Origin: Dorea longicatena
GTDB lineage: Bacteria > Bacillota > Clostridia > Lachnospirales > Lachnospiraceae
DNA length: 64,000 nt
Direction of reading: 5' to 3'
NCBI RefSeq assembly: GCF_025150085.1
Contig: NZ_CP102280.1
Span: forward strand, 325,001 to 389,000
Below, one piece after another: positions 75 through 15,536 of this stretch (the first letter of the stretch is position 1; each line of letters starts with the position of its first letter). The notes beneath the pieces were generated by a model. That model was not told the origin of the DNA. It did no database searches and was given only the letters and a program-made list of their open reading frames with translations. The position numbers and the translations under genes are program-made.

Positions 75-2306
75 ATGAATTATTTTGATCATGAAGAAAA
101 TGTTAAATTTGTTGATGGAATCTTGGAATATTCACAAGAATGGCAATGGCTGTTTGATTATATTGATAAAAGATATGTTTTTGAAGAACCAAAATCGTGG
201 CATGAATTTGTAGATAATTCATATTCAATAAGAGAATTAATTGTTAGATTTGAAAAAATAAGAAATGTGTGTGCTAAAGAATGGATAATTAATAATTCAA
301 TAATAAAAGAAGGATGGGAACTGGCAAAATTTTATAATGGAAGAATTGATATAGTGACTTGTCAAAAATCAATAAATTCATTAACAGGCAAGCTTATGTT
401 GCTAGTATTGTGGATTACTAAATTACTTAATATTGATAATGGGACAGACTATGATTTTAATATAGGGATGCTACAAGAAAAAAATTATTTTCAATTAGTA
501 AATATCGATGAAATAATTAAAAATCTGGATGAAATTAATGAATTTATAGATAATATTTCAATAACAGGAATAGATGAGATAAAGAAATGTTTAAATGATA
601 ATGTGCATTATATAAAATATGATATAGGAGCAGAAGCTGAAGAGAAAATTAGAAAAAGGGCGAATACTTATAATGCATTTAGATTTGACAGTATAAGAAC
701 TAATTTGGGGGCAACATGGCAAGAAGATACAATATTTATGCTTTTAAGTAGGGATTTGCGAGAAGCTGATTCGGATGGAAAAGTATTAGGCACAGATAAG
801 AAAAATATTATAAGAATAAAAGATGATATAGACAATAAGGATGTTAAATTTATTGTAGAAACAATTTTATTTTATTCTTTTGGAGATATTCCTTCGGATG
901 AATGCATTTTAGCCCATTGTGAGATGATACGTCGAGAAATCATCAATAAAACGGATTTGTTTAATTTAAGTATAAGTTCTTCATGTAAATTTATAGAAAA
1001 ACTTTTTGAAAAAAAATTAACTGGAGACTGGAGAAAAGATACGAGATTTGTGGAAATGTTAAAAGCTTTTCAAGTATATATGACTCCAAATGACATCAGA
1101 AGAATTCAGCAAATGCATATACCATTGTCAAAAGTACAAATTGGAGTATATAAAAAATTTTGCGAATCCAAATATAAGGATATAGAAGAAATTAAAGAAT
1201 TACGTGGAATTAGGGATTATTTTGAAGATAAAGATGTGATAACTGGAATAGATAAAACATATTTTGAAATGTTGAGTGTAAAGTTTGATGAACTCGTAGA
1301 AAACAGTGAAAGAGATATAATCTTGGCGGTATCCTTTTATTATTACATGATTTTTTTGATAAGAGTAAAAAAAGAAAATATGTATATAGATAACCAACGT
1401 ATACAATCTGAGATGTTAAGAATAAAAAAATTATGGAGTACAAATTATTATGAGGATGTAGTTAAGAGTATGCAAGTCATTTCAAGTCAACAAAGAATTT
1501 CTGCTCAAAAATGCAATGAATTTAGCAAACGGATTATGATTAATCCTATTTTATTTTCAAATTTGACAATGTCATACGATCAAAATAAAATTTTAAAAGA
1601 AATGATGAAAGCTGCAGAGAATCCGCTTATAATGCTCGTTTCCAATATAGAAATATCAGAGGTTTTTCCGCGAGAAGGGGCAAAAGTAAATTATAAAAGA
1701 CATGATATCGATGCCAAATTTTTAGAAATTATTTCAGAAATAGTAGAAAACAAAGGATATAAATTGTTGAATAAGATGTTGCCAGAGAAATTTGTCGCAT
1801 ATATTTACCAAAACTGTAAAATTGAGCTTCAATTAAATATTACATTGTTTAATGAAGAGGAAAAAATGTATAATTTAATTAAGGCAAAAGCGCCTATTGA
1901 ATTGTTGGAATATGATAAGAAAATATCACTAGCGATGATAACTCAATTATTCCCTGTTTTGGAAATGCAAATTAGAAAGCTTGTATCTTATTTAGGAATA
2001 TTTCCTTATAAAATAGATGAAGAGGAGTTTATGCAATGCAACGATCCGAGTTCTTTACTTAGAGAATTATTGTTACAAATATATAATGAACAAAAAAGTT
2101 TTGAAAATGTTTCGGATATAATGTTTGTTTATAATTCAATGTATAATAGTAATTTTTTGAATATAAGAAATGAATGTATTCATGGACGAGATTATTTAGC
2201 AGGAGGGAAACTTCGATATGCGTTTAGAGTTACGTTATTGTGCATATATATGGTGATGTTTCGAATTGATACTATTGAAGAAAAGGTTAGTGATTTAATT
2301 GATTAA
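75..2306 (+). CDS. DUF4209/HEPN-like protein with RNxxxHG motif
   Basis: A 743-residue protein, very rich in Lys, Ile, Asn and Glu, with no signal peptide. Near the C-terminus (about residues 698-704) it reads R-N-E-C-I-H-G. This fits the RNxxxHG signature used to define DUF4209 and also the R-x4-6-H motif of HEPN RNases. The region before it is predicted mostly helical, and a short hydrophobic helix follows. The start has a purine-rich ribosome site (AAGAAGGAAA) just upstream. Codon use is far more AT-biased than in genes right of 4.6 kb, which points to horizontal transfer. HEPN proteins are often RNases in toxin or phage-defence systems; that role here is inference. The next gene is about 200 bp away on the same strand. 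The family call is fairly secure, the function is not. Confidence 0.7.
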   Translation: MNYFDHEENVKFVDGILEYSQEWQWLFDYIDKRYVFEEPKSWHEFVDNSYSIRELIVRFEKIRNVCAKEWIINNSIIKEGWELAKFYNGRIDIVTCQKSINSLTGKLMLLVLWITKLLNIDNGTDYDFNIGMLQEKNYFQLVNIDEIIKNLDEINEFIDNISITGIDEIKKCLNDNVHYIKYDIGAEAEEKIRKRANTYNAFRFDSIRTNLGATWQEDTIFMLLSRDLREADSDGKVLGTDKKNIIRIKDDIDNKDVKFIVETILFYSFGDIPSDECILAHCEMIRREIINKTDLFNLSISSSCKFIEKLFEKKLTGDWRKDTRFVEMLKAFQVYMTPNDIRRIQQMHIPLSKVQIGVYKKFCESKYKDIEEIKELRGIRDYFEDKDVITGIDKTYFEMLSVKFDELVENSERDIILAVSFYYYMIFLIRVKKENMYIDNQRIQSEMLRIKKLWSTNYYEDVVKSMQVISSQQRISAQKCNEFSKRIMINPILFSNLTMSYDQNKILKEMMKAAENPLIMLVSNIEISEVFPREGAKVNYKRHDIDAKFLEIISEIVENKGYKLLNKMLPEKFVAYIYQNCKIELQLNITLFNEEEKMYNLIKAKAPIELLEYDKKISLAMITQLFPVLEMQIRKLVSYLGIFPYKIDEEEFMQCNDPSSLLRELLLQIYNEQKSFENVSDIMFVYNSMYNSNFLNIRNECIHGRDYLAGGKLRYAFRVTLLCIYMVMFRIDTIEEKVSDLID

Positions 2307-2509
2307 CAAAATCTTATATATTTTGTCTGTTGAAAATTTCTGAAGATAATATTTAGAAATAATTTTAAATAGGTAAATTTCGTTAATGATGAAAAGAATA
2401 TATTATGAAATCAAAGAAATTATATTTGAAATAAAGAAACATGAAAAAGTTGGCAAAAACAGGTTTTGCAAAATTTAGAAGTGACTGAAATAAAGGGAGA
2501 ACAATTTAT

Positions 2510-3337
2510 ATGAGAGAAATGATTGATTTTGATAATCCAAGTTCATTTCCGAAAGAATTGCAAATGTGGGATGCAAGATTTGAAGATTATATACGAAATA
2601 GGATATCACTAGAAGGCGTAACTGAATGGTGGCAGATAGAGCATCAATTACAGGATTTGTGTCTTAAAGAAAGTAATAGTGTAGTAGACTTTTTAAATAA
2701 TAATTTAGAAACAGAGGTTGCAGTATGGCATTGTACACGAGTTTTAAATGAAGAAGATTTTTGGAGAAATGGAATAATTGTGAGTGGTGGACGTGGCTGT
2801 TTAGGAGAAAAACGTATTAGATTACTCTTGTCACAAATTGGAGTTGCACAAGATATGATAGAAAAAATTTTTAAACATATTTATGTGTATTGGGATAGAA
2901 ATATAGAATCCCGAACGGAATCTGTACACTTTCAAGGAGATAAAAAAACTATTTATAACGATGTTAATGCAAGTATTTTTGCAACTAATTTGGGTGGAGA
3001 AATTGTGCGATGGTCTATTGAGAATATAGACAAGAATTTACATAAAAAAGAACCGTATAAACGGCTTTGGATTTTAGGAAAACCTTGTATAATAAAATTC
3101 AAATGTAAATTATCACAAATGCGAGAACGTTCTAGGACAGATGTAATTGTCGAAATTTTAAAATATTTTATTGTGACGAAGATGTATAAATATCCATATG
3201 AATTTGACTTTACAGGAATGACAATTGGAAGTGTTCCATCTGAAAATATTCTTAGCATAGAAGAAATTGAAAATTTTATTGAAATTCATGAGAAATATGA
3301 AGTAGGTTTCTATGACGAATTGAAAAATAATAAGTAA
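2510..3337 (+). CDS. Hypothetical protein of AT-rich island, possible ART-fold
   Basis: A 275-residue soluble protein that I do not recognise. Around residues 74-89 it has an H-x-T-R segment followed by an F-x3-N-G-I pattern. Near the C-terminus there is a V-P-x-E-N-I segment. Some ADP-ribosyltransferase-fold toxins place a His/Arg-containing first strand and a later Glu in this way, but the match is only a visual hint. Base composition matches the flanking HEPN-like and PIN-like genes, so it probably arrived with them. The start ATG follows a GGGAGAAC ribosome site. No membrane segments or signal peptide are visible. It could equally be an immunity or scaffold protein. Confidence 0.6.
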   Translation: MREMIDFDNPSSFPKELQMWDARFEDYIRNRISLEGVTEWWQIEHQLQDLCLKESNSVVDFLNNNLETEVAVWHCTRVLNEEDFWRNGIIVSGGRGCLGEKRIRLLLSQIGVAQDMIEKIFKHIYVYWDRNIESRTESVHFQGDKKTIYNDVNASIFATNLGGEIVRWSIENIDKNLHKKEPYKRLWILGKPCIIKFKCKLSQMRERSRTDVIVEILKYFIVTKMYKYPYEFDFTGMTIGSVPSENILSIEEIENFIEIHEKYEVGFYDELKNNK

Positions 3338-3438
3338 AGGGTATGTAAGGTGTTAAACACACTACAAAAAGGAAGAGTTGGTTGACAACCCTAAGATATA
3401 AAGTCGAAATAAGTAGTTTAAAAGAAGAGGGGAAAGGT

Positions 3439-4515
3439 ATGATATTTTTAGATGCAAACGCTTTTTATTCATATATGGGGAGAAAGAATGTAGGATTGGG
3501 TGAATCTGCACATGTAAAAGAAAAAGAATTGAGAGGGTATTTAGATTCTATATTTGATAAGAGTCTTCCAACATCTGTTTTTATAGAAATAATGGTTCAT
3601 TTTAGAGATGATAAAAAAAGATTAAAACAAATTTTGGATTTTAGAGGAGAAAAAAAATTATCATTATTCAATAATATTCCCGATTATTGTGTAAGTGATG
3701 TGGAGATGAATTGCATATATCATATGAGTGATAATGATTTAAAGAAATATGCGTATCAATTGTTGAATACAAAGATTGATATTGAAAGCAGATTTAGTTA
3801 TTTATTCTATGAAATAACTAAGAATTTATATTTGGAATACAGATTATCTGAAATGAATAAGTTTACTGAAAATCAGGAAAAAGGCATTTGGGAATTCCTT
3901 GGAAGAAAAGAATTTCAAGAAAATCAGGAAGTAGTAACAAATGAATTTAAAAATGCATTGAAAGTTGGTTATGAACAAGGTAAAGATCAAAATATATTAA
4001 AAGAAAAATATATTGATGTGCTTAACGATGCATGCAAAGTTATAGATTTAACACTTGCAGGATGTGCTGCGTGTATAGAAAATCAAATTGATATTATAGA
4101 GGCTATTCAAAAAGCAAATGCTGAAAGTGATTCAAAAGGTTTTGATGGGTTGAATGGAACTATGCCAGGAATAGTTTCAGTGCTTCAAACCAATATTAAA
4201 TTTTTAGAGTATGCAAAACAGAGAATATCAGATATGTTTTTAAAACATGGATATAATAGATATCAAACGGATTATCTTAAAGAGGTCATGTTTAATGCAT
4301 GGTTTGATAGGGCACAAAAATTAAAGAAGAATGATATTTTTGATATGTTGTGTGCTGGTTGTTTGGGATATATAAGACCATTAAAACAAGGCGAAGTTAT
4401 TTTGGCGAATACAAATTCCTATATTATTTCGTTTGATTCAACTATGGAAAAATATATTCATATTGTAAGACCTGATAATATAAAACTTATTCAAAAGTTC
4501 AAAAATAAAATATAA
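3439..4515 (+). CDS. PIN-like domain nuclease
   Basis: A 358-residue protein from the ATG at 3439, preferred over an upstream TTG at 3382 because a strong GAGGGGAAAGG ribosome site sits just before it. The N-terminus (M-I-F-L-D-A-N-A-F-Y) has the hydrophobic strand plus Asp5 that opens PIN domains. Further acidic residues fall where a PIN fold needs them: Glu50 in V-F-I-E, Asp299/Asp302 in N-D-I-F-D-M, and Asp333 in I-S-F-D-S-T. Between the second and third groups lies a roughly 200-residue helical insertion, much longer than in VapC toxins (about 130 residues in all). PIN domains are Mg2+-dependent RNases. Its place after a HEPN-like gene suggests an RNA-targeting or abortive-infection role, which is inference. 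Confidence 0.65.
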   Translation: MIFLDANAFYSYMGRKNVGLGESAHVKEKELRGYLDSIFDKSLPTSVFIEIMVHFRDDKKRLKQILDFRGEKKLSLFNNIPDYCVSDVEMNCIYHMSDNDLKKYAYQLLNTKIDIESRFSYLFYEITKNLYLEYRLSEMNKFTENQEKGIWEFLGRKEFQENQEVVTNEFKNALKVGYEQGKDQNILKEKYIDVLNDACKVIDLTLAGCAACIENQIDIIEAIQKANAESDSKGFDGLNGTMPGIVSVLQTNIKFLEYAKQRISDMFLKHGYNRYQTDYLKEVMFNAWFDRAQKLKKNDIFDMLCAGCLGYIRPLKQGEVILANTNSYIISFDSTMEKYIHIVRPDNIKLIQKFKNKI

Positions 4516-4570: not shown

Positions 4571-6493
4571 TTACATGCTGACGAAAGCGCCGCCAACAGC
4601 TACAAAAAAGTCCTGGACTATTTCGAACCAAAGCTATGGCTTGGTATGACCGCAACGCCAGATAAACGAGACGACAATCTGGAAGGCAGGAACATTTACG
4701 AAATCTTCAATCATCAGATCGCATACGAGATTCGTCTGCAGGATGCGATGGAGGAGGATCTGTTGTGTCCGTTCCATTATTTTGGAATCACGGATCTGGA
4801 TATTATTGCAGATGCGGGGAAATCATCCGAAGAAAAGGTGGAGAACTTCCGCTATCTGACATCCGAAGAGCGTGTGGAAAATGTCATGAAACAGGCGGAA
4901 TATTTCGGATACAGTGGCGACCGCGTGAAGGGGTTGATTTTCTGTAGCCGGATTGATGAGGCGAAGGAATTATCGAAGAAATTCAACGCCAAGGGCTGGC
5001 GGACGCTGGTGCTGAGCGGTAGTGATTCGGAAGAAGCGAGAGCAGCAGCGATCGAACGGCTGGCAGGAGAAGAATCCGAAGATGCCTTGGACTACATCAT
5101 TTCCGTAGACATATTTTCCGAGGGTGTGGACGTGCCGGAGATCAATCAGGTCATCATGCTTCGTCCGACAGAGTCACCGATCGTGTTCATCCAACAGCTT
5201 GGTCGTGGACTTCGTAAAGCTGAGAATAAAGAATATGTCGTTGTACTGGATTTCATCGGAAATTATCGGAATAACTTTATGATTCCGATTGCGCTGTCCG
5301 GCGACCGCAGTTATAACAAGGATAATATCCGCCGTTATGTCACGGAAGGCGGCAGAGTGATTCCGGGTGCGAGCACGATTCACTTCGATGAGATTTCCAG
5401 AAAGCGGATCTTCCAGGCGATTGATAATGCGAACTTCAGCGATATCAAATTAATCCGGGAGAATTATACGAATCTGAAGAATAAGCTGGGGCATATCCCA
5501 GCGCTTGCGGATTTTGATAAGTATGGGGAAATGGATGTGCTGCGGATCTTCGACAATAACAGCCTGGGTTCATATTACAAATTCCTTGTGAAATACGAAA
5601 AGGAATATACCATCCGGCTGTCAGAAGACGAAGAAAAAGCAATCGAATTCATTTCCAAAAAGCTGGCGAGTGGCAAGCGGATTCATGAGCTGGAATTATT
5701 GAAACGTACGTTGCAGTATCGCCATGGAATCATTGGGCGTCTGCGGAAGTATTTATCCGAGAAGTATCATTGTGAGATGAACGAGCACTGCATGGAAAAT
5801 GTGATCAATATGATGACCAATGAATTTCCGACGAGCGCAGCAAAGAAGACTTACGCACAGTGTGTATTTCTGAAGAAGGAACAGGATGATTATGGCATTT
5901 CCGATGTGTATGGGAAAATGTTAGAGAATCCGGAATTCTGTGCGATTCTGGAGGAACTGGTGGACTTCGGAATCTCGAGATATAAGGTCAATTACAGTTA
6001 CCATTATCAGAATACGAATCTGGTATTGTATCAGAAATATACATATGAGGATGCCTGCCGTCTGCTGAACTGGGAGAGAAATGAAGTGCCGCTGAACATC
6101 GGCGGTTACAAATATGATAAGAAGACTAAGACATTTCCGATATTCATTAACTACGATAAGCAGGACAATATCAGCGATACCACGAAATACGAAGATCATT
6201 TCGTAGCAGAGAACCGGCTGATCGCGATTTCCAAAAGTGGAAGAAGCATGGATTCGGAAGATGTGCAGAATTTCCTGAACGCAACAGAACGTGGCATAGA
6301 TGTGCAACTGTTTGTGAGAAAGAATAAGGATGATAAGATATCCAAGGAATTCTATTATCTGGGGCGTGTGATCGCGACCGGGAATGCGAAGCAGTTCGTG
6401 ATGCCGAATACGGATAAGACGGCGGTGGAGATCGAATGGGAGCTGGAGACTCCGGTGAGAGAAGATATTTATCAGTATATTGTGAATGAATAG
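4571..6493 (+). pseudogene. DUF3427-type DEAD/DEAH helicase, 5' half missing
   Basis: The readable part holds helicase motif III (G-M-T-A-T-P), then a complete C-terminal RecA-like lobe with S-E-G-V-D-V-P and Q-Q-L-G-R-G-L-R (motifs V and VI), then a long DUF3427-like tail. Full-length relatives also carry an N-terminal PLD-like nuclease domain, Walker A and the DEAH box. All are absent here. The helicase frame is recognisable back to about 4574 (H-A-D-E-S), and upstream the sequence switches to the AT-rich island and meets a stop at 4529. The ATG at 4646 lies inside motif III and has no ribosome site, so it is not a genuine start. Without Walker A the product cannot be an active ATPase. The break marks the right border of the island. 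Confidence 0.8.
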
Positions 6494-7171: not shown

Positions 7172-8626
7172 ATGACAACAGAAGAATTATATGACAAACT
7201 AAAATTAATTCAAAAAATGAAATGCGAAACGCAGAATTTGGAATTGAAATCAGCGGAGCAAGGATATCCGAAACGATTATATGATTCTTTGTCAAGTTTT
7301 TCTAATCAGGATGATGGTGGCATTATTGTTTTTGGAATTGATGAGAAACAAGATTATAAAGAAGTTGGTGTTTATGATGCTCAGGACATTCAAAAGAAAA
7401 TTAACGAGCAATGCTTGCAGATGAATCCGGTTGTACGGCCGCTTATTACAGTTGTGGAGAAGGAAAATAAAAAATTTGTTTCTGCTGAAATTCCCGGAAT
7501 AGATTTGGCAGACAGACCTTGCTATTATCAAGGACGTGGAAGGTTGAAGGGGTCCTATACCCGTATTGGGGATAGTGATGAACCGATGACAGAATACGAA
7601 ATATATAGTTATGAAGCATATAGAAGAAAATATCAAGACGATATCCGTGAGGTTCCGAGAGTAACATTAATGTCATTGGATCAGGAAGAACTGAATCGTT
7701 ATGTTGAACTGTTAAAGAGAGGAAAACAAAGATTAGCAACACTTGATAATGAAAGTATTTATGAACTTATGAGCATAAAGCGAGGAGAGAAAGTAACGCT
7801 TAGTGCGACTTTGCTTTTTAGTCCATATCCACAGGCATATTTTCCACAATTGTGTATTACGGCAATTGTAATTCCTGGGAGAACAATAGGAAGTCTTGGC
7901 GACATGGGGGAAAGATTCTCAGATAATCAGAGAATAGAAGGAACAATTCCGGAAATGTTGGATGAGGCATTATTATTTGTGAAACGCAATATGCGGACAA
8001 AGACAATTATAAGTCCGACAACCGGACGAAGAACTGACAGAACAGACTATCCAATAACAGCGGTTAGAGAAGCTATTATAAATGCATTAGTACATCGTGA
8101 TTATAGTATTCATACAGAAGGAATGCCGATTCAACTTATAATGTTTGAAGACAGGATTGAAATACATAATCCAGGTGGATTATATGGAAGAATCACTATC
8201 GACCAATTAGGAAAAATTCAACCGGATACAAGAAATCCGGTACTTGCATCGGCACTTGAAACATTGGGAATAATAGAAAACAGGTATTCGGGAATTCCAA
8301 CAATCCGGATGGAAATGGAGAAATATAACTTAAGACAGCCAGAATTCTTGGATGAAAGAGGAAGTTTTATTGTAAAACTATATAAAGAATCAAAGAATGA
8401 TTATGAAGATATGTCAAATGATGAAGAAACAAATAATTTAATAGTATTTTGTAAAACACCGCGTACAAGAAAGGAAATTTGTGATTATCTGGGGTTAAAT
8501 TCTGTTACTTATGCTATACAGACGTATGTAAATCCATTAGTAGAAGCTGGCGTAATTAAGTTGAGTATTCCAGATAAGCCAAAGAGTCCAAAACAGTTAT
8601 ATTATAGCGTAGAAAGAGAAAAATGA
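7172..8626 (+). CDS. AlbA_2 (Schlafen-like) / HATPase_c_4 putative regulator
   Basis: A 484-residue protein. Residues about 15-130 form an AlbA_2 (Schlafen AlbA-like) domain, with E-L-K-S near the start and G-G-I-I-V-F-G-I after it. A middle region is followed by a GHKL-type ATP-binding domain containing R-E-A-I-I-N-A-L-V-H-R-D-Y and I-E-I-H-N-P-G-G, often labelled 'ATP-dependent DNA helicase RecG-like'. The last 70 residues look like a winged helix (T-R-K-E-I-C-D-Y-L-G-L). Such proteins are usually annotated as putative transcriptional regulators, and some occur in defence islands. The ATG has a GGAGG site 8 nt upstream. From residue 103 to the stop it is duplicated almost perfectly at 14374-15523. 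Confidence 0.8.
   Translation: MTTEELYDKLKLIQKMKCETQNLELKSAEQGYPKRLYDSLSSFSNQDDGGIIVFGIDEKQDYKEVGVYDAQDIQKKINEQCLQMNPVVRPLITVVEKENKKFVSAEIPGIDLADRPCYYQGRGRLKGSYTRIGDSDEPMTEYEIYSYEAYRRKYQDDIREVPRVTLMSLDQEELNRYVELLKRGKQRLATLDNESIYELMSIKRGEKVTLSATLLFSPYPQAYFPQLCITAIVIPGRTIGSLGDMGERFSDNQRIEGTIPEMLDEALLFVKRNMRTKTIISPTTGRRTDRTDYPITAVREAIINALVHRDYSIHTEGMPIQLIMFEDRIEIHNPGGLYGRITIDQLGKIQPDTRNPVLASALETLGIIENRYSGIPTIRMEMEKYNLRQPEFLDERGSFIVKLYKESKNDYEDMSNDEETNNLIVFCKTPRTRKEICDYLGLNSVTYAIQTYVNPLVEAGVIKLSIPDKPKSPKQLYYSVEREK
7477..8626 (+). repeat. 1150-bp direct repeat, copy 1
   Basis: Bases 7477-8626 align without indels to 14374-15523 (constant offset 6897). I counted about seven substitutions by eye. 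The repeat covers most of the AlbA_2/HATPase gene and flanks the sucrose island. Confidence 0.92.
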
Positions 8627-8673
8627 GAGAAGACCAATTCCTGCGGCAGCGTCTGCAGAAAGAAATCCCGATT
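8627..8673 (+). pseudogene. 47-bp stray fragment of the SprT-like gene
   Basis: Directly after the stop of AlbA_2 copy 1, 47 bp match positions 15918-15964, the start of the SprT-like gene, with four scattered mismatches. The match stops at CCCGATT on both sides. It is too diverged to be a recent copy, so it looks like an allele from a related strain. It shows that AlbA_2 once ran straight into this gene here. Confidence 0.8.
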
Positions 8674-14373: not shown

Positions 14374-15523
14374 TGTTTCTGCTGAAATTCCCGGAATAGA
14401 TTTGGCAGACAGACCTTGCTATTATCAAGGACGTGGAAGGTTGAAGGGGTCCTATACCCGTATTGGGGATAGTAATGAACCGATGACAGAATACGAAATA
14501 TATAGTTATGAAGCATATAGAAGAAAATATCAAGACGATATCCGTGAGGTTCCGAGAGTAACAGTAATGTCATTGGATCAGGAAGAACTGAATCGTTATG
14601 TTGAACTGTTAAAGAGAGGAAAACAAAGATTAGCAACACTTGATAATGAAAGTATTTATGAACTTATGAGCATAAAGCGAGGAGAGAAAGTAACGCTTAG
14701 TGCGACTTTGCTTTTTAGTCCATATCCACAGGCATATTTTCCACAATTGTGTATTACGGCAATTGTAATTCCTGGGAGAACAATAGGAAGTCTTGGCGAC
14801 ATGGGGGAAAGATTCTCGGATAATCAGAGAATAGAAGGAACAATTCCGGAAATGTTGGATGAGGCATTATTATTTGTGAAACGCAATATGCGGACAAAGA
14901 CAATTATAAGTCCGACAACCGGACGAAGAACTGACAGAACAGACTATCCAATAACAGCGGTTAGAGAAGCTATTATAAATGCATTAGTACATCGTGATTA
15001 TAGTATTCATACAGAAGGAATGCCGATTCAACTTATAATGTTTGAAGACAGGATTGAAATACATAATCCAGGTGGATTATATGGAAGAATCACTATTGAC
15101 CAATTAGGAAAAATTCAACCGGATACAAGAAATCCGGTACTTGCATCGGCACTTGAAACATTGGGAATAACAGAAAACAGGTATTCGGGAATTCCAACAA
15201 TCCGGATGGAAATGGAGAAATATAACTTAAGACAGCCAGAATTCTTGGATGAAAGAGGAAGTTTTATTGTAAAACTATATAAAGAATCAAAGAATGATTA
15301 TGAAGATATGTCAAATGATGAAGAAACAAATAATTTAATAGTATTTTGTAAAACACCGCGTACAAGAAAGGAAATTTGTGATTATCTGGGTTTAAATTCT
15401 GTTACTTATGCTATACAGACGTATGTAAATCCATTAGTAGAAGCTGGCGTAATTAAGTTGAGTATTCCAGATAAGCCAAAGAGTCCAAAACAGTTATATT
15501 ATAGCGTAGAAAGAGAAGAATGA
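14374..15523 (+). pseudogene. AlbA_2/HATPase gene, second copy lacking 5' end
   Basis: This copy aligns base for base with 7477-8626 and keeps the middle region, GHKL ATP-binding domain and winged helix. It lacks the start codon and the first ~102 residues, which make up most of the AlbA_2 domain. An open frame reaches back to an ATG at 14312, but those codons come from transposon and leader sequence, not from the gene. The few changes are scattered, and the frame stays open, so the duplication is recent. The stop codon overlaps the ribosome site of the ArsC-like gene, the likely ancestral arrangement. Any product would be a truncated ATPase/wHTH protein that might interfere with the full-length one. 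Confidence 0.82.
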
Positions 15524-15536
15524 GAGAGGAACAAGG

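What the first reader, a model, noticed from the sequence alone, without database searches (positions are those of the whole stretch)
75..4515. AT-rich three-gene cassette: HEPN-like, unknown and PIN-like proteins
Three consecutive same-strand genes share an AT-rich composition unlike everything right of 4.6 kb. The first carries RNxxxHG (DUF4209/HEPN), the third has the acidic set of a PIN nuclease with a large insert, and the middle one is unplaced. Two different RNase-type folds with an unknown partner would fit an uncharacterised RNA-targeting defence or toxin module. The motifs are seen; the joint function is inference.
Basis: partly seen in the sequence, partly recalled or inferred. Interest (0 to 1): 0.78.

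Follow-up and report, generated by a model that had tools for sequence, protein, structure and literature searches.

The report
Three stacked HEPN, ART-like, PIN genes
Three neighbouring bacterial genes look like three separate predicted anti-phage or toxin-type enzymes (two RNA-cutting types and one ADP-ribosyltransferase-like protein) parked side by side in a defence island, rather than parts of one shared machine.

Summary
In detail: three same-strand genes of 27-30% GC fill 75-4515, and no 4.5-kb stretch to the right is as AT-rich. The island continues to the left, outside the window: SEFIR, Shedu, Gabija and a type II R-M set with Vsr precede the first gene. The cassette lies between a decayed piece of a DUF3427 helicase gene and a second such gene cut open just after its DEAH box. 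P1 (743 aa) is a divergent DUF4209-type HEPN relative (profile-profile 85-92%; controls 0.1-0.3%; invariant RNEC-H-GR). P3 (358 aa, start 3439) has a VapC-like PIN fold with a long helical insert. None reaches a Pfam or PADLOC family. Joint function is not supported: in every relative locus examined, each gene lies without the other two, next to R-M genes, DdmDE, integrase-like ORFs, prophage-like ORFs or a helicase. Best reading: three independently mobile, probably single-gene modules stacked in one island. Ordinary in kind, with two leads: an R-M-linked ART-like family and a DUF4209-like gene that is third in a DdmDE operon.

The parts
75..2306 (+). P1, 743 aa: divergent DUF4209/C6orf70-type HEPN relative with a long N-terminal part and RNECIHGRDY near the C-terminus (R698, H703)
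   Evidence: ORF; invariant motif in 8 sequences; profile-profile match to 4 DUF4209 proteins with the RNxxxHG motif in register, controls at 0.1-0.3%; no Pfam family at E up to 1 and only one weak PADLOC hit, E 0.028
2510..3337 (+). P2, 275 aa: ART-like fold, with H74-C-T-R77 on the first long strand and invariant G162-G163-E164
3439..4515 (+). P3, 358 aa: VapC-like PIN protein with a helical insert between E50 and D299
4589..6493 (+). 5'-truncated DUF3427 helicase (type IV restriction-like); right boundary of the cassette, homology begins just after the DEAH box. Not part of a joint system
   Evidence: PADLOC mREase_IV 483 bits, profile 367-953 of 953; Pfam DUF3427; DNA homology to an intact 985-aa relative in a same-genus genome starts at window 4589

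Best explanation
The three genes are separate, probably single-gene, defence or toxin-type modules stacked next to one another in a defence island of an unnamed bacterium (probably Lachnospirales, inferred from the names of relatives). The DNA around them is a broken DUF3427 helicase-Nudix locus that now holds the island. P1 most likely works as an HEPN RNase: its long N-terminal part senses an infection signal and the R698/H703 sites of a dimer cut host or invader RNA (motif and homology shown; fold, sensing, dimer and cutting inferred). P3 most likely works as a VapC-type metal-dependent RNase whose long helical insert restrains it or recognises a trigger, because there is no room for a VapB-like gene beside it (predicted fold and acidic set shown; control by the insert inferred). 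P2 most likely transfers ADP-ribose from NAD+ to a nucleic acid or protein during infection, as an accessory in R-M islands (predicted fold and R-M neighbourhood shown; activity and target inferred). The likely outcome in each case is growth arrest or phage block, reached independently.
For: Linkage not conserved: P3 in 2 of 392, P2 in 3 of 392, P1 in 3 of 392 genomes of the order, own genome included each time. In 12 relative-bearing genomes searched whole, P2 was found in 3 and P1 in 2; of the 8 of these known to bear P3 (G384, G392-G398), P1 was in 0 and P2 in 1 (G392, 76 bits, on a contig other than that of its P3). 0 of 9 named P3 loci have P1 or P2 in the DNA held, and 0 of 3 P1 loci and 0 of 3 P2 loci elsewhere have another of the three. 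P1 relatives: third gene after DdmD and DdmE in G336; some 2.4 kb from an integrase-like ORF in G373; alone between six tRNA genes and an integrase-like ORF in G467. P2 relatives: after a type III Res gene (G310), after methylase, HsdS and one more gene (G392), a broken copy downstream of a GmrSD-HNH gene (G314). P3 relatives: about 30 nt after a MkoC-like helicase gene, near recombinase-like ORFs, between phage portal-like and terminase-like ORFs, among housekeeping-like ORFs (ORF labels without a family hit are by eye). Known defence genes lie immediately to the left: SEFIR, SduA, GajA/GajB, MTase_II, REase_II, Vsr.
Confidence: 0.72

Rival explanations
1. One joint module: HEPN RNase, ART and PIN RNase act together, for example the ART modifies or licenses the two RNases, or they form a layered abortive-infection response.
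For: Same strand, same composition, gaps of 203 and 101 nt, and three predicted enzyme types common among toxins.
Against: No relative locus examined keeps two of them together and no other genome searched holds two close relatives; partners differ from genome to genome.
Confidence: 0.1
2. P2 and P3 form a two-gene unit (toxin with modifier or antidote) and P1 is an unrelated neighbour.
For: P2 and P3 are only 101 nt apart, and both families have many relatives in the protein collection (97 and 86 proteins).
Against: 0 of 9 named P3 loci have P2 in the DNA held (3 of the 9 are partial matches near contig ends). Of 8 other P3-bearing genomes searched whole, none has a close P2 and one has a distant P2 on another contig. 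The 3 P2 loci elsewhere lie beside restriction-type genes without P3.
Confidence: 0.13
3. P1 is an add-on effector of the R-M or other DNA-targeting system just upstream, turning a DNA-sensing event into RNA cutting.
For: In G336 the P1 relative starts 6 nt after the DdmE gene of a DdmDE pair; a published survey states that the C6orf70/DUF4209 family occurs in R-M related operons (PMC3710099, passages seen); here P1 follows a type II R-M set.
Against: 520 nt with a decayed helicase piece separate Vsr from P1; two other P1 relatives (G373, G467) lie near integrase-like ORFs, with no ORF similar to the G336 DdmD or DdmE in the DNA held.
Confidence: 0.2

Closest known systems
C6orf70/DUF4209 (PF13910) HEPN family
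   Same: The RNxxxHG motif and a preceding P-x-x-E-x-x-x-R block align in register; the family is reported in R-M related operons
   Different: P1 and 5 relatives give no PF13910 match at E up to 1; P1 is 743 aa with its own conserved N-terminal blocks
VapC/FitB PIN toxins
   Same: Whole PIN fold in the model and conserved acidic positions
   Different: 358 aa instead of about 130; long helical insert; no room for a VapB-like gene beside it; no PIN family among the Pfam hits shown for 32 members
ADP-ribosyltransferases (Tpt1/KptA, DarT, TreX/TreTu, Scabin, and the catalytic chains of pertussis- and cholera-type toxins)
   Same: Core ART fold in the model; H-x-T-R on the first long strand
   Different: Each single match is weak; extra N-terminal helices; active-site glutamate not identified; free-standing gene in R-M surroundings
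DdmDE plasmid and phage defence
   Same: A P1 relative is the third gene of such a run in G336
   Different: No DdmD or DdmE among the ORFs of the window cassette or of the 15 kb to its left named

Membership tests
DUF4209/C6orf70 HEPN (P1) | Conserved RNxxxHG motif | tested here: met
   R698, N699, H703, G704 invariant in 8 of 8 sequences
DUF4209/C6orf70 HEPN (P1) | Pfam PF13910 score above cut-off | tested here: not met
   No PF13910 match in 6 of 6 members at E up to 1; no PF13910 match in the own genome. So P1 is called a divergent relative, not a PF13910 member
DUF4209/C6orf70 HEPN (P1) | Homology by profile-profile comparison | tested here: met
   hhalign 84.6% and 91.6% in the two directions over 219-220 columns, 8 P1-type against 4 DUF4209 proteins; 4 unrelated pairs, the reversed alignment and 8 column shuffles all 0.1-0.3%
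DUF4209/C6orf70 HEPN (P1) | HEPN helical fold | not tested
DUF4209/C6orf70 HEPN (P1) | RNase activity | not testable with these tools
   Needs the protein
PIN domain (P3) | PIN fold | tested here: met
PIN domain (P3) | Conserved acidic residues at the PIN positions | tested here: met
   D5, E50, D299, D302, D333 invariant in 32 of 32; their assignment to PIN sites is recalled
PIN domain (P3) | Pfam PIN family match | tested here: not met
   No PIN family among 25 of 26 families shown for 32 members at E up to 1, and no family at all for P3 itself
VapBC toxin-antitoxin (P3) | Small antitoxin gene adjacent | tested here: not met
   The gap before P3 is 101 nt, and 73 nt lie between its stop and the start of the helicase homology, too short for a separate antitoxin gene; the gene before it is the 275-aa P2
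ART superfamily (P2) | ART fold | tested here: met
ART superfamily (P2) | Catalytic triad (R-S-E or H-Y-E) | tested here: inconclusive
   H74, R77, E164 invariant in 35 sequences; H and E kept and R replaced by K in the distant L032 copy; no superposition of side chains was possible
ART superfamily (P2) | Known ART family by sequence | tested here: not met
   1 of 35 members gives Pfam PARP at E 0.096; better-scoring weak hits are to unrelated families (Bmt2, 6 members, best E 0.0012; Parb-CE, 4 members, best E 0.0086)
A conserved three-gene defence system | The three genes co-occur and stay adjacent in other genomes | tested here: not met

The most novel reading that the evidence does not exclude
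The P1 family is a general plug-in RNase effector for DNA-sensing defence: in G336 it is the third gene of a DdmDE operon and in the window it follows a type II R-M set, so that recognition of foreign DNA by one system would switch on HEPN cutting of RNA. The ART-like P2 family would play a parallel plug-in role for R-M systems, making this island a set of interchangeable second-line effectors.
Probability: 0.15. Interest if true: 0.75.

Novelty: new member of a known kind. Interest (0 to 1): 0.4.

Why it matters
Three protein families that reach no Pfam or PADLOC family in our scans can now be given a likely superfamily and a test: a divergent DUF4209-type HEPN, an R-M-linked ART-like family, and a large PIN protein. 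The DdmDE-linked relative of P1 gives a directly testable question about whether Argonaute-type plasmid defence can carry an RNA-cutting third gene. The case also shows that being neighbours in a defence island does not by itself make a system.

Tried and rejected
Joint module: rejected as the main reading for lack of conserved linkage.

Family libraries: Pfam, PADLOC, NCBIfam and PHROGs gave no hit over a cut-off for P1-P3. Weak hits seen and set aside because neither the fold nor most other members bear them out: for P2 DarA_C (E 0.021), RecX (NCBIfam, E 1.4e-4, 22 bits against a cut-off of 266), Bmt2 (6 of 35 members, best E 0.0012), Parb-CE (4 of 35, best E 0.0086); for P1 PDC-M52B (E 0.028) and single-member Pfam hits (best E 0.046); for P3 relatives single-member hits (best RepB_C, E 0.0017). 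Sequence search of solved structures gave nothing usable (best E 0.041 with P2, to a C-type lectin).

Phage, plasmid and viral collections: no match for P1, P2, P3 (viral contigs, 34-36 plasmids, 37-39 phages), nor in plasmids for P0028 and the L025, L032, L014 copies.

The promoter scan was little above shuffles (44 against mean 36.1, sd 6.5) and gave no plus-strand terminator-like site, so operon structure stays open. A short stretch shared by the two ends of the cassette was seen by eye and judged chance.

Contig lengths of the P2 and P3 hit lists were compared by eye for signs of shared contigs: one coincidence (2463 bases), not usable.

Literature: DUF4209 gave 1 paper, of which I saw passages. 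DdmDE with HEPN gave 2; PIN domain, defense island and HEPN gave 7; three of DdmDE, Argonaute, operon, additional gene gave 47, 15 listed; of these I saw only listings with the starts of abstracts. No claim is made that the DdmDE link is unpublished.

Full report
What is there. The window is bases 325001-389000 of a genome held as a single 2.92-Mb contig. At its left end lie P1 (75-2306, 743 aa), P2 (2510-3337, 275 aa) and P3, all on the plus strand. P3 is listed from a TTG at 3382, but most relatives aligned begin at the position of the ATG at 3439 (358 aa), which by eye has the better ribosome-binding-type stretch. GC is 0.269, 0.300 and 0.272 for the three genes, with GC3 of 0.19-0.21; the lowest GC of any 4.5-kb stretch beginning right of 4.6 kb is 0.378.

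Surroundings. Reading 15 kb to the left (L003) shows that the window cuts a defence island. PADLOC names, in order, a type IV restriction-like helicase, bSEFIR, SduA (Shedu), GajA and GajB (Gabija), a type II methyltransferase, a type II restriction enzyme and Vsr. SEFIR to Vsr have GC of 0.30-0.37. In the 520 nt between Vsr and P1 is a decayed piece of helicase DNA, 83% identical over 285 bases to window 5286-5570. To the right of P3 the same kind of helicase gene is 5'-truncated: DNA homology to an intact 985-aa relative in a same-genus genome (G694) starts at window 4589, just after the DEAH box. In G694 the helicase is followed by a Nudix-like gene, as the fragment is here, so the island sits in a broken helicase-Nudix locus. 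The cassette between the two helicase pieces is about 4.65 kb.

P1. P1 has no Pfam match at E up to 1, and its 5 relatives of alignment A3 have only single-member weak hits. One relative, P0028 (33% identity), bears the name DUF4209 in a source. I took four proteins above the PF13910 cut-off from four other genomes and compared profiles with P1 and 7 relatives. About 220 C-terminal columns align at 84.6% probability (91.6% the other way), with NIRNECIHGR opposite NLRN...HG. Four unrelated pairs, the reversed alignment and eight column shuffles scored 0.1-0.3%. P1 is thus a divergent relative of DUF4209, a family that a published survey places in the HEPN superfamily, predicts to be active and reports in R-M related operons (PMC3710099, passages seen). 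The fold of P1 itself was not predicted.

Linkage. In 392 genomes of the order, P3 was found in 2, P2 in 3 and P1 in 3, the own genome included each time and no other genome on two lists. A scan of named genome contigs gave 9 P3 loci, three of them partial matches near contig ends; the ORFs of 60 aa or more in the DNA held contain no P1 or P2. In 12 relative-bearing genomes searched whole, P2 was found in 3 and P1 in 2. Of the 8 among them that bear P3 (G384, G392-G398), none has P1 and one, G392, has a distant P2 (76 bits) on a contig other than that of its P3. A phylum sample gave P1 in 2 of 299, own included. The ORFs of the 3 P1 loci and 3 P2 loci fetched from other genomes hold none of the other two families. 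Searches of phage, plasmid and viral collections gave nothing.

Contexts elsewhere. P1 relatives: G336, starting 6 nt after a DdmE gene (solved-structure match E 2.7e-17) that overlaps a DdmD gene (E 1.6e-64); G373, with an integrase-like ORF about 2.4 kb away; G467, alone between six tRNA genes and an integrase-like ORF. P2 relatives: after a type III Res gene in G310; after a methylase, an HsdS and one more gene in G392; a broken copy in G314 downstream of a GmrSD-HNH gene, with a short recombinase-like ORF between. P3 relatives: about 30 nt after a MkoC-like helicase gene (L009), between portal-like and terminase-like ORFs (L011), near recombinase-like ORFs (L008, L010, L014), among housekeeping-like ORFs (L007). 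The '-like' ORF labels without a family hit are by eye.

Conclusion. The data support three independent modules stacked in one island, each probably able to act alone. One joint module is not supported, though the number of loci with readable neighbours is small (3, 3 and 6 near-complete). Mechanisms beyond predicted fold and motif are inference.

Noticed in passing
L025:2748-10875 (G336:C6): DdmD (PDB match E 1.6e-64), DdmE (E 2.7e-17) and a P1 relative form a tight three-gene run, the third gene starting 6 nt after the second; a 156-aa ORF follows.
   Followed up: partly
L003:3843-14554 (left of window): Defence island with bSEFIR, SduA, GajA/GajB and a type II R-M set with Vsr immediately before the cassette.
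   Followed up: yes
L003:14647-14930 and window 5286-5570: A decayed 285-base piece of a DUF3427 helicase gene, 83% identical to the copy right of the cassette, lies left of P1.
   Followed up: yes
window 7477-8637 and 14374-15534: A 1161-base stretch covering most of the Schlafen/AlbA_2-type gene at 7172-8626 is duplicated at 99.2% identity (Pfam).
   Followed up: no
L008:9564-11344: A P3 relative is followed by an ORF with RNWLMHGR, an RNxxxHG motif, and an HNH-like ORF (both read by eye, no Pfam hit): PIN and HEPN-like genes near each other again, but the HEPN-like one is not a P1 relative.
   Followed up: partly
L009:3394-9056: A P3 relative starts about 30 nt after a MkoC-like helicase gene (PADLOC E 4.9e-70) that follows an AlbA_2-type gene.
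   Followed up: no
L011:2-3017: A P3 relative lies between portal-like and terminase-like ORFs of a prophage-like fragment (read by eye).
   Followed up: no
L023:5428-6225: Broken P2 copy in two pieces downstream of a GmrSD-HNH gene, with a short recombinase-like ORF between.
   Followed up: no
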